Positions 55,482 to 60,778 of a DNA stretch of 64,000 bases are shown one piece after another. The translations under genes were made by a program, and so were the position numbers. The notes beneath the pieces were generated by a model. It ran no database searches. It saw only the letters and a program-made list of their open reading frames with translations, and was not told the origin of the DNA. The stretch is from Chloroherpeton thalassium ATCC 35110. Its GTDB lineage: Bacteria; Bacteroidota; Chlorobiia; Chlorobiales; Chloroherpetonaceae. The stretch is from positions 2,462,001 to 2,526,000 of the forward strand of contig NC_011026.1 of assembly GCF_000020525.1 (NCBI RefSeq). Direction: 5' to 3'. Positions within the stretch are counted from its first letter, which is position 1; every line of letters starts with the position of its first letter.

Positions 55482-55511
55482 GCGCTAAAATCAGCCGACG
55501 GATTTTAGCGC
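55482..55511. repeat. Hairpin overlapping the stop of the M14 gene
   Basis: GCGCTAAAATC (55482-55492) pairs perfectly with GATTTTAGCGC (55501-55511), 8-base loop. It sits in the convergent gap and includes the last codons of the leftward carboxypeptidase. Without T runs it is not a standard terminator. Confidence 0.5.
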
Positions 55512-56549
55512 CAGCTCGATGGTGTGAAGCTGAATTTTAACGGCGGTTGCAATCGGCAGCGATTTTATTTCAAAATCATCGAGCAAATCGTCAATTGTTT
55601 CATTTCGTTCGAGCCGCAATTTCATTTCCGGAAGGCGCGATTTCAATTTCAAGTAAGCTTCCGGCACACCTTTCAGCTTCACTTTTTCACCTCTCTTTTT
55701 AACTTCAAAAAGCGGCAATTCTGTGACCAAACAAAGCGGCGAGCCGCCGAGCGATTTCACGTATTCCATTGACGTTTGGTGAAAAAGCCGAGCGGTGTCC
55801 GGGTCGTTTTGTTCGAGAAAAAACTTGCGCATGGCTTCCGATTCCGGCGTGGAGGAAAATCCGGAGCGAATGTAAATGAAGCCTTTTTCGCCATGCCGGT
55901 CGTGGTCGTGCATGTCCAAGCCCTCCGCTCGGGAAAAGCGTTCGACTTTGTCTCGAAAGAATTCTGTTATTGCAATGTTGTCTTTATCGATAAGAAACAT
56001 CGCGCCTTCCGAAAATCCCATGCCATGCAAGCTTAAATGCGCATGAAACGGCGCAAAATCCTTCAAAAACTGGGCGACGGCTTCGTTTTCAACGCGCATG
56101 TTGGGGAAGCCGAATTCCAAATCCCTGCCGGGCAATTCGCGAAACGCATGTTGCATATAAGCGGGGAAGTCCGGCCACTTATCTTTCCAAATTCGATTAC
56201 GAAACTCGCCGTCGGGATTGATATGCGGAACGACGGCAAATTGATAGGCTTCCAAATAATGCCGATAAGCATCGGGATTGTCGAGCAGTTCGGAGATGAG
56301 AAGCGAAAGCGTTTCCGTGCCGACCGGTTCGTCGGAATGTGCGCCGGCTATCAGGCTGATTTTTTTTGCCCCGTTACCCAGCACGAAGGCATCAATCGGG
56401 CGCGATTCCTCACTTTCACCGATTTGGACATATCGCCCCAAATCCGCATGTCGTTCGGCAAGCGCAATCAGCTCGTTGCGCACGTCTGAAAAATGGCGGA
56501 AGCGATTGTGAGGGAAGCGGTTCGAATTGATCAAATCGGAAAGCGGCAT
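55491..56549 (-). CDS. M14-family zinc carboxypeptidase-like protein
   Basis: 352 residues from the ATG at 56549 (MPLSDLINSNRFPHNRFRHF); a frame to 56603 adds 18 residues. The zinc motif is H71-S-D-E74 in LIAGAHSDEPVG, then HINPDGEFRNRIWKD with the arginines, then LSLHGMG as third zinc ligand and LVTELPLF with the catalytic glutamate. No signal peptide, so it seems cytoplasmic; it is of the succinylglutamate desuccinylase/carboxypeptidase type rather than a secreted digestive form. Substrate unknown. Separate from the ApbE gene by 84 bases. Confidence 0.85.
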   Translation of the reverse strand: MPLSDLINSNRFPHNRFRHFSDVRNELIALAERHADLGRYVQIGESEESRPIDAFVLGNGAKKISLIAGAHSDEPVGTETLSLLISELLDNPDAYRHYLEAYQFAVVPHINPDGEFRNRIWKDKWPDFPAYMQHAFRELPGRDLEFGFPNMRVENEAVAQFLKDFAPFHAHLSLHGMGFSEGAMFLIDKDNIAITEFFRDKVERFSRAEGLDMHDHDRHGEKGFIYIRSGFSSTPESEAMRKFFLEQNDPDTARLFHQTSMEYVKSLGGSPLCLVTELPLFEVKKRGEKVKLKGVPEAYLKLKSRLPEMKLRLERNETIDDLLDDFEIKSLPIATAVKIQLHTIELALKSVG

Positions 56550-56633
56550 AGGAACAGTGGATGAATAATAAGTTGATGGTTTCTTGATGAAGAAAAATAA
56601 CATTTACATTCGGCTTAGAAAGATATTTCCCAA

Positions 56634-57671
56634 CTAATTCCCCCCAATCGGAAACTTTGTCAAAGTCCTCAACTTGTAGCGGTGAACCAATGTGCTGTCT
56701 AAGTGCAAATTGCCGGTTTCGTCCAAAATTAAGTAATTCTTGAAAGTCCCGGCGGCGCGAATCTCTGCGATGCCTTTGATGAAAAGCGTTGTGGAAAGCA
56801 CGTCGGTGGCTTCGGCGGAGGTTTCGGAAAGGACGCTGACGCTTTTGCAGCGGCGCGAGGGACGACCGGTTTTCGGGTCTAAAATGTGATGATAGCGCAC
56901 GGCGTCTTTCATAAAAAAGCGTTCGTAATCGCCGCTTGTGGAAATCGCGCAATCCTTTATCTCCATGATGGCAAAAATTTCGCCCGGCGCTCTGGGGTGG
57001 CGAATCCCGATTTGCCACTTTTCGGTCGCCGATTTCATCCCCGAAACGAACATATCACCGCCCGCCTTGATGATGAAATTTTCAACCTTGTTGCGTCTTA
57101 AAATCTCAACGGCGCGGTCTATGGCATAGCCTTTTGCAATACCGCCCAAATCCAAGCGCATGTTTTTTCGGGTTAAAAAAGCGGTGGTGTCGTTTTCGCT
57201 TAAAATCAGTCGGCGATAATTGACGAGTGGGAGAGTTTGTTGAAGGTCTGCGTCTTGGGGCAGTGACGGCGGGCGATTGAGGTTAAAGCCCCAAAGTTCG
57301 GCAATTGCGCCGATGGTTGGGTCAAAGTCGCCCTGATATTTTTCCGCGTAAGCTTTTGCGCGAGCCAAAAGCCGGAAAGTTTCCGCGCCGATTTTCACGG
57401 GATGCTTTCCGGCAAAATCGTTGATTCGCGCCACATCGCTTCCGTTGCCTTGATAGCCCAATCGCTTATCAATGCGCTCGATTTCCTTGAACGCGAAATA
57501 AATGCCTTTTTTCGCCTCCAAAATGTCGGGATGAACGGCCTTGATTTCGACCGTCGTTCCCATCATGTATTTTTGAAGGTTGATTTCGTATAGCACTGCC
57601 GGGTTTTCCTGCGCCGAGACCGGGCGGGAAATCAGGCATAAGAACAAACAGAGTCTAAAAAACAATCGCAT
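56634..57671 (-). CDS. apbE: ApbE family FAD:protein FMN transferase
   Basis: 345 residues from the ATG at 57671, which starts a signal peptide (MRLFFRLCLFLCLISRPVSA); a longer frame to 57764 adds 31 residues. ApbE motifs are present in order: YMMGTTVEIK at 35-44, GNGSDVARIND, DLGGIAKGYAIDRAVEIL, GGDMFVSG and STSGDYERFF, then HHILDPKTGRPS. ApbE uses Mg and FAD to link FMN to a Ser/Thr in a D-x-x-S/T-G-A-T/S-like sequence of exported proteins. Its start overlaps the end of the NusG-II gene by 17 bases. As the last gene of the leftward redox set, it probably modifies a product of that set; see the DUF3570 entry. Confidence 0.93.
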   Translation of the reverse strand: MRLFFRLCLFLCLISRPVSAQENPAVLYEINLQKYMMGTTVEIKAVHPDILEAKKGIYFAFKEIERIDKRLGYQGNGSDVARINDFAGKHPVKIGAETFRLLARAKAYAEKYQGDFDPTIGAIAELWGFNLNRPPSLPQDADLQQTLPLVNYRRLILSENDTTAFLTRKNMRLDLGGIAKGYAIDRAVEILRRNKVENFIIKAGGDMFVSGMKSATEKWQIGIRHPRAPGEIFAIMEIKDCAISTSGDYERFFMKDAVRYHHILDPKTGRPSRRCKSVSVLSETSAEATDVLSTTLFIKGIAEIRAAGTFKNYLILDETGNLHLDSTLVHRYKLRTLTKFPIGGN

Positions 57672-58335
57672 CGTTTTTTCCCGAACCCGAAAGCGCAACG
57701 GTGATTTGATTCGGAATGCAAACGAGCGAGCGTCCGGCCTCTTTGACCGTTCCCATTTGCACACAAGTTTTGTGCCTGCAAGACGTTTCCGCCACGCTCA
57801 CCGCGCCGTTTTTGATTTGAACGGACATCGCGCCTTTTAAGCCTTCCACCGTAAATATTTTATCCTCTTTCGCAGAGAACGAAACTTCCTCAATCAGCGT
57901 GTTTTGTCTGAAAACGCGCACTTTTTCCGGCTGCGAACTCGGCGCTCCCGAAGTGAATTGAAGGCAAGTCGGGTTTTTTACTTTTGTTAAAACATCCAGT
58001 TTTCGAGCCATGCGGGCGAGGTCGCGAGATAAGGCGTCGCCTTGAAGTTTGTAATTTACCAGACGGCTGTTTTTGACAAGCGCAATTTCGCCGATATTTT
58101 CACCTGCTACTGCAAATTCGGAATATTGAACCTGTCCCGCCGTTCCGAAATGCCGTTGAATCAGGCTTTGTGCCATGTCGAGCGCCTGCTCGGGCGAGCC
58201 GGTTAGGATGCTCAAGCTAAATCCGCTCTCAGCCGGTGCGTGTTCCACCGCCGAAAGCAGCCCTGTCGCCATGCCGGTGAAGGGCAACGCAACCAGCATT
58301 TGCATACTTCTCTTTAAAAAAATCCGTCTATCCAT
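57655..58335 (-). CDS. Tat-exported protein with C-terminal NusG domain II
   Basis: 226 residues from ATG 58335 (MDRRIFLKRSMQMLVALPF); a frame to 58359 adds 8 residues. D-R-R-I-F-L-K is a twin-arginine signal, implying export of a folded, possibly cofactor-bearing protein. After about residue 130 the sequence fits the NusG domain II: VQIKNGAVSVAETSCRHKTCVQMG, then SLVCIPNQITVAL. Domain II proteins of this kind often sit beside ApbE and FMN-binding or thioredoxin-like partners. The middle part is not recognised. The sequence TSGAPSS looks a little like a flavin site but has Pro where Thr/Ser is required. Confidence 0.8.
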   Translation of the reverse strand: MDRRIFLKRSMQMLVALPFTGMATGLLSAVEHAPAESGFSLSILTGSPEQALDMAQSLIQRHFGTAGQVQYSEFAVAGENIGEIALVKNSRLVNYKLQGDALSRDLARMARKLDVLTKVKNPTCLQFTSGAPSSQPEKVRVFRQNTLIEEVSFSAKEDKIFTVEGLKGAMSVQIKNGAVSVAETSCRHKTCVQMGTVKEAGRSLVCIPNQITVALSGSGKNDAIVF

Positions 58336-58373
58336 TTGGCCTCCGTGATTTCCAATCAAAATAATTGCCTTGT

Positions 58374-59621
58374 TTAAATGGGAATTTTAAATCCGAGCGT
58401 AAGAATATACGCATACAAATTCCGGTATCTGATAAACCAGTCCGGCGAATCCACATGCCGGTGATAAAAATTGATGCCGAGTATCATTTGCGAGCCGTCG
58501 CTTTGGAACGGGAAGCCGATGACCGGCGTCTCTCGGAAAAGCGACCCGTTGAATTTCAGGCTAACTTCATATTCATAGGAGTAGCCGGAATTGAGTTTGC
58601 TATCGACCGTAAAGTAATTTCCCGCATTTACCCACGCCATGTCGTAGGTCGGCTTAAAGAAATATGCCGCCGTTTGCGTGTAGTGACGAATGCCGATGCC
58701 GAGCGTAATTTGTCTATCGGAAAGATAGTGCTGCACCGATGCGTTCACCGTATGCGAACGAATCTTCCAATCGTCCCAATAGTAGCGGTAGCCTAACTGT
58801 AAGGAAGTTTCTTCGAAGAGCGCATAATTGGCACGAAGCCCCATGGCTTTGCGCTCGCGGCTGTCAGGATGGTAATCGTTGTAGAGCTTCACCGTATTGC
58901 CGTCGACAATCGAAACCACTTGATAGGCATCGGACAAAAAGCCCGAATGGTTTGAATACGACACGTTCAGTTGCGTGATAAGGCTGCGGCTTAAAACTTG
59001 CGTCACGCCCGTGCTGATGGAGTAGACGTCTTTATTTTTTTCCCAAGAAGCGGCTTTCATTTGCGCAATATCGGGTGTGATGTTGTCCCAACTGCGCACA
59101 AAGCCCAACTGCAACACGGTATTTTTCTTGGCAAACGGTTGCGAAAAACTGACGGCCATCGTCTTGGAGTCGTAGTCGTGCTCGGTGCTGTAGATGCCGT
59201 TGAGCGAAATCGTGGTTTGTCCGAAAATCTGTGTGACGCCGGCGATCAGTTCGTGGCGAATATCGTCGGGGTCGGTAACCGACGGGGAAATTTGGGATGC
59301 CGAAGAAACCGCGTCGGGGCTTAAATTTTTCGGCGAGGCCGAGCTGATGCCGTCGGGTGAAAACGGTGAGCGGCTGACATTTTCAAAACTACTTTTCATA
59401 GACGCCGCGCTGACCATATCGAGTTGATATTGGGCGCGAACGGCGGTGTTGTCATTAATCCGCTTGGACACCGAAACGGACGGATAGACGATGCTCACCT
59501 CGGCATTGTCAAAATATCCGTCAAAATTGATCTGAACCGCGTCTTCCGGCAAATCTTGCGCCGCGAGCAGGGTTGCCCAGACAAGAAAAACGAAGATCGG
59601 AAGTTGAATTTTTTTAACCAC
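58374..59621 (-). CDS. DUF3570 outer-membrane beta-barrel protein with three putative flavinylation motifs
   Basis: 415 residues: signal peptide (MVKKIQLPIFVFLVWATLLA), then residues 40-110, then an amphipathic beta-barrel of alternating-residue strands (YEYEVSLKFNGSLF, LQLGYRYYWDDWKI) ending in LYAYILTLGFKIPI, as in DUF3570. Three copies of D-x-[VI]-S-x-A-S are at 68-74 (DMVSAAS), 90-96 (DGISSAS) and 103-109 (DAVSSAS). The ApbE consensus is D-x-x-[ST]-G-A-[TS], so only the Gly is replaced. Whether DUF3570 is flavinylated at these sites is inference. Overlaps the DUF4266 gene by 8 bases and precedes the NusG-II gene by 38. Confidence 0.85.
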   Translation of the reverse strand: MVKKIQLPIFVFLVWATLLAAQDLPEDAVQINFDGYFDNAEVSIVYPSVSVSKRINDNTAVRAQYQLDMVSAASMKSSFENVSRSPFSPDGISSASPKNLSPDAVSSASQISPSVTDPDDIRHELIAGVTQIFGQTTISLNGIYSTEHDYDSKTMAVSFSQPFAKKNTVLQLGFVRSWDNITPDIAQMKAASWEKNKDVYSISTGVTQVLSRSLITQLNVSYSNHSGFLSDAYQVVSIVDGNTVKLYNDYHPDSRERKAMGLRANYALFEETSLQLGYRYYWDDWKIRSHTVNASVQHYLSDRQITLGIGIRHYTQTAAYFFKPTYDMAWVNAGNYFTVDSKLNSGYSYEYEVSLKFNGSLFRETPVIGFPFQSDGSQMILGINFYHRHVDSPDWFIRYRNLYAYILTLGFKIPI

Positions 59622-59826
59622 AGCCGCACCCTCCGCTTTGCGAGCCGGTGCCGCCTTCCGACCCCTCTCGATAGTTGATATGATGTTCTTTCAGCCCCTT
59701 TTCGATAGGATTTTCATCAAAAATCATAATGGGGTCGGCCAATTTTTCTCGTTCCCAAGGTTGCACGGTCGCGCAGCCTTGCAAAACGGCGAGCAGTAGG
59801 AAAAATATCAGATAGGTCTTTTTCAT
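59614..59826 (-). CDS. DUF4266 lipoprotein
   Basis: 70 residues from the ATG at 59826. MKKTYLIFFLLLAVLQGC has a lipobox with Cys18, so the mature protein is about 53 residues on a lipid anchor. The segment CATVQPWEREKLADPIM and the glycine-rich Cys-Gly end GGCGCG identify DUF4266, which recurs in gene neighbourhoods with DUF3570, TlpA and ApbE. A longer frame to 60054 overlaps the TlpA gene and is not the real gene. Role unknown; likely anchors or assists the outer-membrane partner. Confidence 0.88.
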   Translation of the reverse strand: MKKTYLIFFLLLAVLQGCATVQPWEREKLADPIMIFDENPIEKGLKEHHINYREGSEGGTGSQSGGCGCG

Positions 59827-59848
59827 GACAAGCGAGCGGCTGCGATTT

Positions 59849-60374
59849 TTAAAACAACTGTTCCAAATCCGATTTGTAATCGTCCGTGTTTGACGGATGA
59901 AACCCCTTGTAGCGATAGCGAATTTTGCCCTCGCGGTCGATGAAAATCGTCGTCGGCATGGCTTCCGGGCTATATTTTTCGGCGATTGTCGCTTCGGGGT
60001 CGGGTACGATTTTAAAAGAAATCGGCCGGTCGCTTTTGGCATTGACCTGTTCAATAAACCGCTTCATGTTCTTTTCTTTTGTATCCATGTTTATCGCCAA
60101 AATCTCGAAGCCTTTTTCTTTATAGGTCTCATATAGCTCAATCAAAAACGGCATTTCCATTTTGCAAGGCGCACACCAGCTTGCCCAAAAATCCAGCAAT
60201 ACGACTTTGCCTTTCAAATCGGAAAGCGAAACCTTATTGCCGTTCATATCGGTTGCGCTGAAATCCGGCGCGTCGCTGCCGACGGTTTGCGAAAGTGCGG
60301 GTTCGGCAAAAAACATTCCGGCAATCGCAAGCAAAAAGAGCGTGCCGACGGCTTTTTTTTAATAATTTTTGCAT
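59849..60374 (-). CDS. TlpA-like periplasmic thioredoxin, with apparent frameshift at an A8 run
   Basis: Thioredoxin-like domain with the redox motif WCAPC, ASWCAPCKMEMPFL, and a signal-peptide-like N-terminus. In the main frame the only early starts are TTG at 60334 or ATG at 60313, and a TAA stands just upstream at 60361-60359. An ATG at 60374 with AGGAG at 60387-60383, eight bases upstream, opens MQKLLKK; removing one A from the run of eight A at 60353-60360 joins it in frame to AVGTLFLLAIAGMFFAEPAL, a good signal peptide. The true gene probably spans 60374-59849 with a frameshift (slippage, phase variation or sequence error). It lies 14 bases after the cytochrome stop and 22 before DUF4266. 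Confidence 0.85.
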
Positions 60375-60388
60375 CGAAAAAACTCCTG

Positions 60389-60778
60389 TCAATTTTGATT
60401 GATAATCGGCGACCGATTGGCTTGTAGAAAGTCAACCGTCGGATTTGACGAGTTCGAACTACGAAACAACAAACTTGCCAAATTCGGAGCCTCGTTTTCG
60501 CGCCGAGCGTCGATTTCCCAAATGCTGCCGTGACATTGATAGCAAGACGGGGTTGCTTGCCCTTCGGATACGCCGCCTTTTAAGTTATCTCCATGGCAAT
60601 CCTTGCAGGTCGTAACATCGTTGTTCGGCATGGGCGCGTGGTAGGCGTAGCCTCGTTCGTCCGTATGGTCTGCGGGCAACGCTTCTTTGGTTTCCGTAGG
60701 AAAAAGTCCGCATCCGCCAATTGCGAGCAAAAGCGTCAAGGCGACAAGAAAAACGGTTTTATCGGCGTCTATTTTCAC
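60389..60778 (-). CDS. Di-heme c-type cytochrome lipoprotein
   Basis: 129 residues. The N-terminus carries a lipobox, LAIGGC with Cys23, after a hydrophobic stretch, and two heme sites: C58-KD-C61-H62 and C79-YQ-C82-H83. It is a small lipid-anchored two-heme cytochrome of the envelope. It heads the leftward set TlpA, DUF4266, DUF3570, NusG-II, ApbE, all in close spacing. Together they suggest an electron-transfer chain in the periplasm or outer membrane. The C-terminal 40 residues are polar and not recognised. Confidence 0.87.
   Translation of the reverse strand: MKIDADKTVFLVALTLLLAIGGCGLFPTETKEALPADHTDERGYAYHAPMPNNDVTTCKDCHGDNLKGGVSEGQATPSCYQCHGSIWEIDARRENEAPNLASLLFRSSNSSNPTVDFLQANRSPIINQN

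What the first reader, a model, noticed from the sequence alone, without database searches (positions are those of the whole stretch)
56634..60778. Candidate flavin/heme envelope electron-transfer system: ApbE beside a DUF3570 protein with three flavinylation-like motifs
Seen: six leftward genes in tight spacing encode a di-heme cytochrome lipoprotein, a TlpA-like thioredoxin, a DUF4266 lipoprotein, a DUF3570 outer-membrane barrel, a Tat-exported NusG-II protein and ApbE. The DUF3570 protein carries D-x-[VI]-S-x-A-S three times in 42 residues before the barrel (59400-59420, 59334-59354, 59295-59315). Known: ApbE attaches FMN to Ser/Thr in D-x-x-[ST]-G-A-[TS]. Inference: the barrel's N-terminal region is multiply flavinylated, bridging heme in the periplasm to the outside of the cell. 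The glycine is replaced by Ala or Ser in all three copies, so the enzyme would have to accept a relaxed motif.
Basis: partly seen in the sequence, partly recalled or inferred. Interest (0 to 1): 0.82.

Follow-up and report, generated by a model that had tools for sequence, protein, structure and literature searches.

The report
Heme-linked flavin outer-membrane barrel operon
A six-gene operon builds an outer-membrane protein that probably carries two or three chemically attached flavins on an outward-facing loop, next to a heme protein; this is a new, conserved variant of an already described flavin-based electron-transfer system.

Summary
That ApbE flavinylates DUF3570 is already published: Meheust et al. 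2021 (PMC8238504) showed it on Chlorobium luteolum DUF3570 at two [S/T]GA[S/T] sites and described ApbE/DUF3570/thioredoxin/DUF4266 clusters. So the core idea is known.

What I add is a distinct variant. The window's DUF3570 belongs to a 21-member clade (support 1.0; Chloroherpetonaceae, Kapaibacteria, Ignavibacteria, Calditrichota, others). Its clusters also encode a small c-type heme lipoprotein and, in most, a Tat-exported NusG_II protein. In the clade two motifs are invariant at Asp, Ser/Thr, Ala and the acceptor Ser/Thr, yet the textbook Gly is never present (0 of 44 sites; 15 Ala, 29 Ser), against 64 of 65 in Chlorobium-type proteins. The third site occurs only in the window and one family relative. 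In four relatives the cluster's ApbE is the only one found and no FMN_bind protein was found.

AlphaFold gives a confident 16-strand outer-membrane barrel. The motifs sit in a disordered loop between strands 3 and 4, not before the barrel, and on the predicted outer face. Flavinylation is likely; the heme-to-flavin path and its direction are inferred.

The parts
60389..60778 (-). di-heme c-type cytochrome lipoprotein (2 CxxCH)
   Evidence: ORF; Cytochrom_c3_2 just below cut-off; homologues directly upstream in all clade members with upstream sequence
59849..60374 (-). TlpA-like thioredoxin (CAPC), exported; frame broken at an A8 run near the start (ATG 60374 out of frame with the body; in-frame TTG at 60334)
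   Evidence: AhpC-TSA/Redoxin; for the frame
59614..59826 (-). DUF4266 lipoprotein ending in CGCG
   Evidence: C-terminal GGCGCG invariant in 21 aligned proteins
58374..59621 (-). DUF3570 outer-membrane 16-strand barrel, predicted flavinylation substrate
   Evidence: AlphaFold pLDDT 86.2, pTM 0.81; Foldseek hits are outer-membrane barrels
59400..59420 (-). site A, DMVSAAS (predicted FMN on Ser74)
   Evidence: D, S/T, A and final S in 21 of 21 clade sequences that cover the loop
59334..59354 (-). site B, DGISSAS (predicted FMN on Ser96)
   Evidence: D, G, S/T, S, A and final S/T in 21 of 21 clade sequences that cover the loop
59295..59315 (-). site C, DAVSSAS (predicted FMN on Ser109)
   Evidence: only in the window and its family relative L073/L033
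59265..59411 (-). disordered loop 71-119 between strands 3 and 4 that carries the sites
   Evidence: pLDDT below 50 at residues 76-117
57655..58335 (-). Tat-exported NusG_II protein with conserved Cys/His; N-terminal domain of unknown family
   Evidence: (R3, R4, C186, H188, C191, C206 invariant)
56634..57671 (-). ApbE, FAD:protein FMN transferase with secretion signal
   Evidence: aligns over its catalytic region to solved ApbEs such as 1vrm and 7esa

Best explanation
The operon makes a flavin/heme electron relay of the outer membrane. ApbE attaches FMN to the last Ser/Thr of Gly-less D-x-[VI]-[ST]-[AS]-A-[ST] motifs in one long loop of the DUF3570 barrel (two sites across the clade, three here), most likely while the chain is still unfolded in the periplasm. 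After insertion the loop is displayed on the outer face. Electrons pass between a periplasmic reductant (thioredoxin, DUF4266 CXC lipoprotein, heme lipoprotein) and these flavins, and so between the periplasm and something outside, for example ferric iron. Shown here: gene content, motif conservation, predicted fold. Established in a homologue: DUF3570 flavinylation. Inferred: modification of this protein, loop outside, heme as partner, direction outward.
For: C. luteolum DUF3570 is flavinylated by its cognate ApbE at two sites (PMC8238504). Motif residues are invariant in 21 clade sequences while mature-protein identity averages 0.55. The clade is monophyletic with support 1.0 and has 0 of 44 Gly against 64 of 65 in Chlorobium-type proteins. 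In this genome the only other ApbE lies in the Rnf cluster, next to the only FMN_bind hit. In four relatives the cluster ApbE is the sole ApbE hit and no FMN_bind was found. The ApbE aligns to solved ApbEs. The barrel has 16 strands: gaps on the motif-loop side are 4, 49, 2, 13, 26, 4, 29 and 10 residues, on the other side 4, 2, 4, 2, 2, 4 and 19, so the motif loop is on the usual outer face; PDB hits are outer-membrane barrels. The cytochrome is next to the cluster across the clade and has 11 CxxCH in the nearest relative. Gly to Ala still gives about 50% flavinylation in another target (PMC12052999).
Against: No flavin has been shown on any Gly-less DUF3570. No inner-membrane electron donor lies in the cluster; the only DsbD-type hit is elsewhere. 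Four clade members lack adjacent ApbE and NusG_II, though their genomes hold an ApbE elsewhere. The outward loop rests on a predicted fold and a length rule. No gene in the cluster names the outside partner. NusG_II has no explained role.
Confidence: 0.62

Rival explanations
1. The Gly-less motifs are a degenerate remnant: the loop is conserved for another reason (Ser/Ala-rich turn, carbohydrate or metal binding) and is not flavinylated.
For: All three sites lack the Gly of the textbook motif; Gly to Ala halves flavinylation in another system.
Against: Asp, Ser/Thr, Ala and acceptor are invariant at both sites in 21 proteins; cluster ApbE retained with no FMN_bind substrate in four relatives; Ser at the Gly position is also common in Bacteroidota DUF3570 beside ApbE.
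Confidence: 0.12
2. The flavin loop folds into the barrel or faces the periplasm, so the system is a periplasmic relay or an FMN-gated pore rather than an outside-facing conduit.
For: The loop is disordered in the model (pLDDT below 50), so its position is not seen; ApbE acts in the periplasm.
Against: Termini and short turns lie on the opposite side from the motif loop; DUF3570 from C. luteolum was flavinylated in E. coli although mostly found in the pellet and purified denatured, so a folded, inserted barrel seems not to be needed.
Confidence: 0.2
3. The heme lipoprotein, thioredoxin and NusG_II are maturation or redox-repair helpers (thiol reduction, cofactor loading) and do not exchange electrons with the flavins.
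For: TlpA-like proteins often serve cytochrome maturation (own knowledge); a CcmF-like gene follows the cluster in L033 (my reading of the sequence); NusG_II carries conserved Cys and His.
Against: Thioredoxin and DUF4266 accompany DUF3570 far outside the heme clade, and the heme protein stays beside them even where ApbE and NusG_II are not adjacent.
Confidence: 0.25

Closest known systems
DUF3570/ApbE/thioredoxin/DUF4266 clusters ('DsbD systems', Meheust et al. 2021, PMC8238504)
   Same: Same four protein families side by side; DUF3570 as flavinylation substrate; more than one site in one protein
   Different: Adds a c-type heme lipoprotein and usually a Tat NusG_II protein; motif lacks Gly at every site; a third site in Chloroherpetonaceae; no DsbD in the cluster
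Multi-flavinylated FMN_bind proteins (PMC8238504, PMC10339131)
   Same: Several covalent FMN on one extracytosolic protein, possible longer-range electron transfer
   Different: No FMN_bind domain; sites are in an outer-membrane barrel loop
Porin-cytochrome conduits such as MtrCAB (own knowledge)
   Same: Would move electrons across the outer membrane with a barrel and c-type hemes
   Different: 16-strand barrel, not a large sheath; covalent flavins; small heme protein in most members

Membership tests
ApbE-flavinylated DUF3570 system | DUF3570 protein above Pfam cut-off | tested here: met
   172.1 bits against cut-off 25
ApbE-flavinylated DUF3570 system | adjacent secreted ApbE | tested here: met
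   268.5 bits; overlaps the NusG_II gene
ApbE-flavinylated DUF3570 system | thioredoxin-like and DUF4266 neighbours | tested here: met
ApbE-flavinylated DUF3570 system | [S/T]GA[S/T] sites as worded by Meheust et al. | tested here: not met
   SAAS, SSAS, SSAS; Gly absent in 44 of 44 clade sites. The wider pattern D-x-x-[ST]-x-A-[ST] is met
ApbE-flavinylated DUF3570 system | covalent FMN on the protein | not testable with these tools
   needs mass spectrometry; shown for the C. luteolum homologue only
ApbE-flavinylated DUF3570 system | DsbD in the cluster | tested here: not met
   only DsbD_TM hit is at G000:C1:279008; Meheust et al. also report 316 such clusters without DsbD, so it is not a required feature
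Outer-membrane beta-barrel | closed antiparallel barrel with even strand number | tested here: met
   16 strands counted from the predicted model's secondary structure; Foldseek hits to outer-membrane barrels
Porin-cytochrome outer-membrane conduit | multiheme cytochrome inserted in a large barrel | tested here: inconclusive
   2 hemes here, 11 CxxCH in L033; no complex modelled

The most novel reading that the evidence does not exclude
A new kind of outer-membrane electron conduit in which a c-type heme lipoprotein passes electrons to covalent FMNs tethered on an outward-facing barrel loop, written by an ApbE lineage that works on Gly-less motifs.
Probability: 0.25. Interest if true: 0.75.

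Novelty: new variant of a known kind. Interest (0 to 1): 0.5.

Why it matters
It widens the recognised flavinylation motif: searches for [S/T]GA[S/T] would miss this clade. It also links covalent flavins and c-type hemes around one outer-membrane barrel, and it makes a question that seems open in the papers I could read, what DUF3570 does and on which side of the membrane its flavins sit, directly testable with a compact operon from a single-contig genome.

Tried and rejected
Literature searches for NusG domain II with ApbE, and for DUF4266, gave nothing beyond Meheust et al.. Profile search of the PDB with DUF3570 found no sequence relative. I looked for ApbE residues that go with the Gly-less motif: nine positions separate the heme clade from Chlorobium-type ApbEs (for example His against Cys at 261), but phylogeny confounds them, so no claim. 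I compared di-heme proteins upstream of DUF3570 in Sulfurimonas; they are not the same family as the clade's heme lipoprotein. I rejected 'already fully known' because the papers read do not mention Gly-less sites, NusG_II or a c-type cytochrome with DUF3570; their supplements were not readable here, so this is not proof of absence. Precise matching of sites A to C with the two Chlorobium sites was dropped because the loop aligns poorly. A second genome of the same genus, to test the A8 frame break, is not held.

Full report
OBSERVATION. The window is G000:C1:2462001-2526000 of a single-contig genome of 3,293,456 bases; by size I take it for Chloroherpeton thalassium (own knowledge, not tested). 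On the minus strand, in tight or overlapping order, lie a di-heme lipoprotein, a TlpA-like thioredoxin, DUF4266, DUF3570, a NusG_II protein with a twin-arginine start, and ApbE. The three motifs are at the stated coordinates. In 20,000 shuffles of the protein the pattern D-x-x-[ST]-[AGS]-A-[ST] was never found twice.

WHAT WAS ALREADY KNOWN. Meheust et al. 2021 (PMC8238504) identified DUF3570 as an ApbE substrate, showed flavinylation of the Chlorobium luteolum protein by its cognate ApbE at two [S/T]GA[S/T] sites, and described ApbE/DUF3570/thioredoxin/DUF4266 clusters with and without DsbD. DUF4266's CXC end was noted there. In the papers I could read, Gly-less sites, NusG_II and a c-type cytochrome with DUF3570 are not mentioned; the supplements could not be read.

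CONSERVATION. DUF3570 relatives were taken from phylum genomes and from a GTDB-wide scan (369 relatives, best 80 kept). A tree of 137 sequences puts 21 of them, the window included, in one clade with support 1.0. Members come from MAGs labelled Chloroherpetonaceae, Kapaibacterium, Ignavibacteria, Calditrichota, Gemmatimonadetes and Latescibacterota, among others. All members with enough upstream sequence have the heme lipoprotein beside the cluster; most have NusG_II and ApbE downstream; four do not (L078, L080, L087, L088), but their genomes hold an ApbE elsewhere. Two members (L044, L052) have no TlpA gene between the heme protein and DUF4266, and none was called in L085 and L086.

THE MOTIFS. 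Site A is D-x-[VI]-[ST]-[AS]-A-S and site B is D-G-[IV]-[ST]-S-A-[ST]; Asp, the first Ser/Thr, Ala and the acceptor are invariant at both in the 21 sequences that cover the loop, against a mean identity of 0.55 for the mature protein. Gly is absent at all 44 Asp-led sites (15 Ala, 29 Ser); in Chlorobium-type DUF3570 it is present at 64 of 65. Many Bacteroidota DUF3570 beside ApbE have Ser at this position, usually without the leading Asp. Site C is shared only with the family relative L073/L033, so two sites are general and the third is a lineage addition. A review of ApbE reports about 50% flavinylation when Gly was changed to Ala in the Klebsiella fumarate reductase (PMC12052999), so loss of Gly does not by itself forbid the reaction.

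SUBSTRATE BY EXCLUSION. The genome has two ApbEs and one FMN_bind hit; the second ApbE sits between Rnf genes, and the FMN_bind hit lies about 1.5 kb from it, as expected for RnfG (gene names are my reading of the sequences). In G400, G404, G405 and G406 the cluster ApbE is the only ApbE hit and no FMN_bind was found. These are draft genomes, and DUF2271 and other substrates were not searched, so this is support, not proof.

STRUCTURE. AlphaFold with 69 sequences gives pLDDT 86.2 and pTM 0.81. I count 16 strands, and the best PDB matches are outer-membrane barrels (FepA, PelB, AlgE, OprD-type, OmpG). The motif loop, residues 71-119, follows strand 3. On that face the gaps are 4, 49, 2, 13, 26, 4, 29 and 10 residues; on the other face 4, 2, 4, 2, 2, 4 and 19. 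By the usual rule (termini and short turns periplasmic) the motif loop is outside. The loop itself is not resolved (pLDDT below 50). The NusG_II model is weaker (77.4): its C-terminal domain matches NusG_II/DUF1312 structures such as Lin0431, and its N-terminal part has no clear match.

MECHANISM. Most likely: secreted ApbE loads FMN onto the unfolded chain (inference; the Chlorobium protein was flavinylated in E. coli although mostly in the pellet and purified denatured), the barrel inserts, and two or three flavins hang on an outer loop. Electrons are exchanged with the periplasm through the heme lipoprotein and/or the thioredoxin and DUF4266 cysteines. Outward flow to an acceptor such as ferric iron is my preferred direction because the clade is wider than phototrophs, but nothing here tests direction. 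My estimates: sites A and B flavinylated 0.85, site C 0.7, loop outside 0.6, direct heme-flavin exchange 0.5, ferric iron as acceptor 0.25.

VERDICT. A real and well-conserved system, correctly spotted; its central chemistry is published for the family. New here are the Gly-less site pattern as a clade rule, the heme and NusG_II partners, the third site, and a predicted outer-loop position.

Noticed in passing
window 60334-60374 (minus strand): The thioredoxin ATG at 60374, behind a good ribosome-binding site, is out of frame with the body across a run of eight A's; with seven A's the frame would read a normal signal peptide. Reference error, slippage or a TTG start at 60334 are all possible.
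   Followed up: partly
L033:5955-7133 (same as L073): In the family relative the heme lipoprotein is expanded to about 392 residues with 11 CxxCH, and a CcmF-like gene follows the cluster.
   Followed up: partly
phylum genomes, genera g3 and g4: Many genomes of the same order carry several DUF3570 matches, up to nine in one genome, suggesting paralogue expansion.
   Followed up: no
L169:148-1925: A further NusG_II-ApbE gene pair without DUF3570 in the 3.4-kb locus, on another contig of the genome that holds L076.
   Followed up: no
L078:11528-14778: Two open frames with about 20 CxxCH each lie downstream of the DUF3570 cluster in a Calditrichota genome.
   Followed up: no
window 56637-57671, residue 261 of ApbE: The residue before the conserved His of ApbE is His in the heme clade but Cys in most Chlorobium-type DUF3570-linked ApbEs.
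   Followed up: partly
window 55491-56603 (minus strand): A zinc-carboxypeptidase (Peptidase_M14) gene begins about 30 bases after apbE; it was not found beside the cluster in the family relative.
   Followed up: partly
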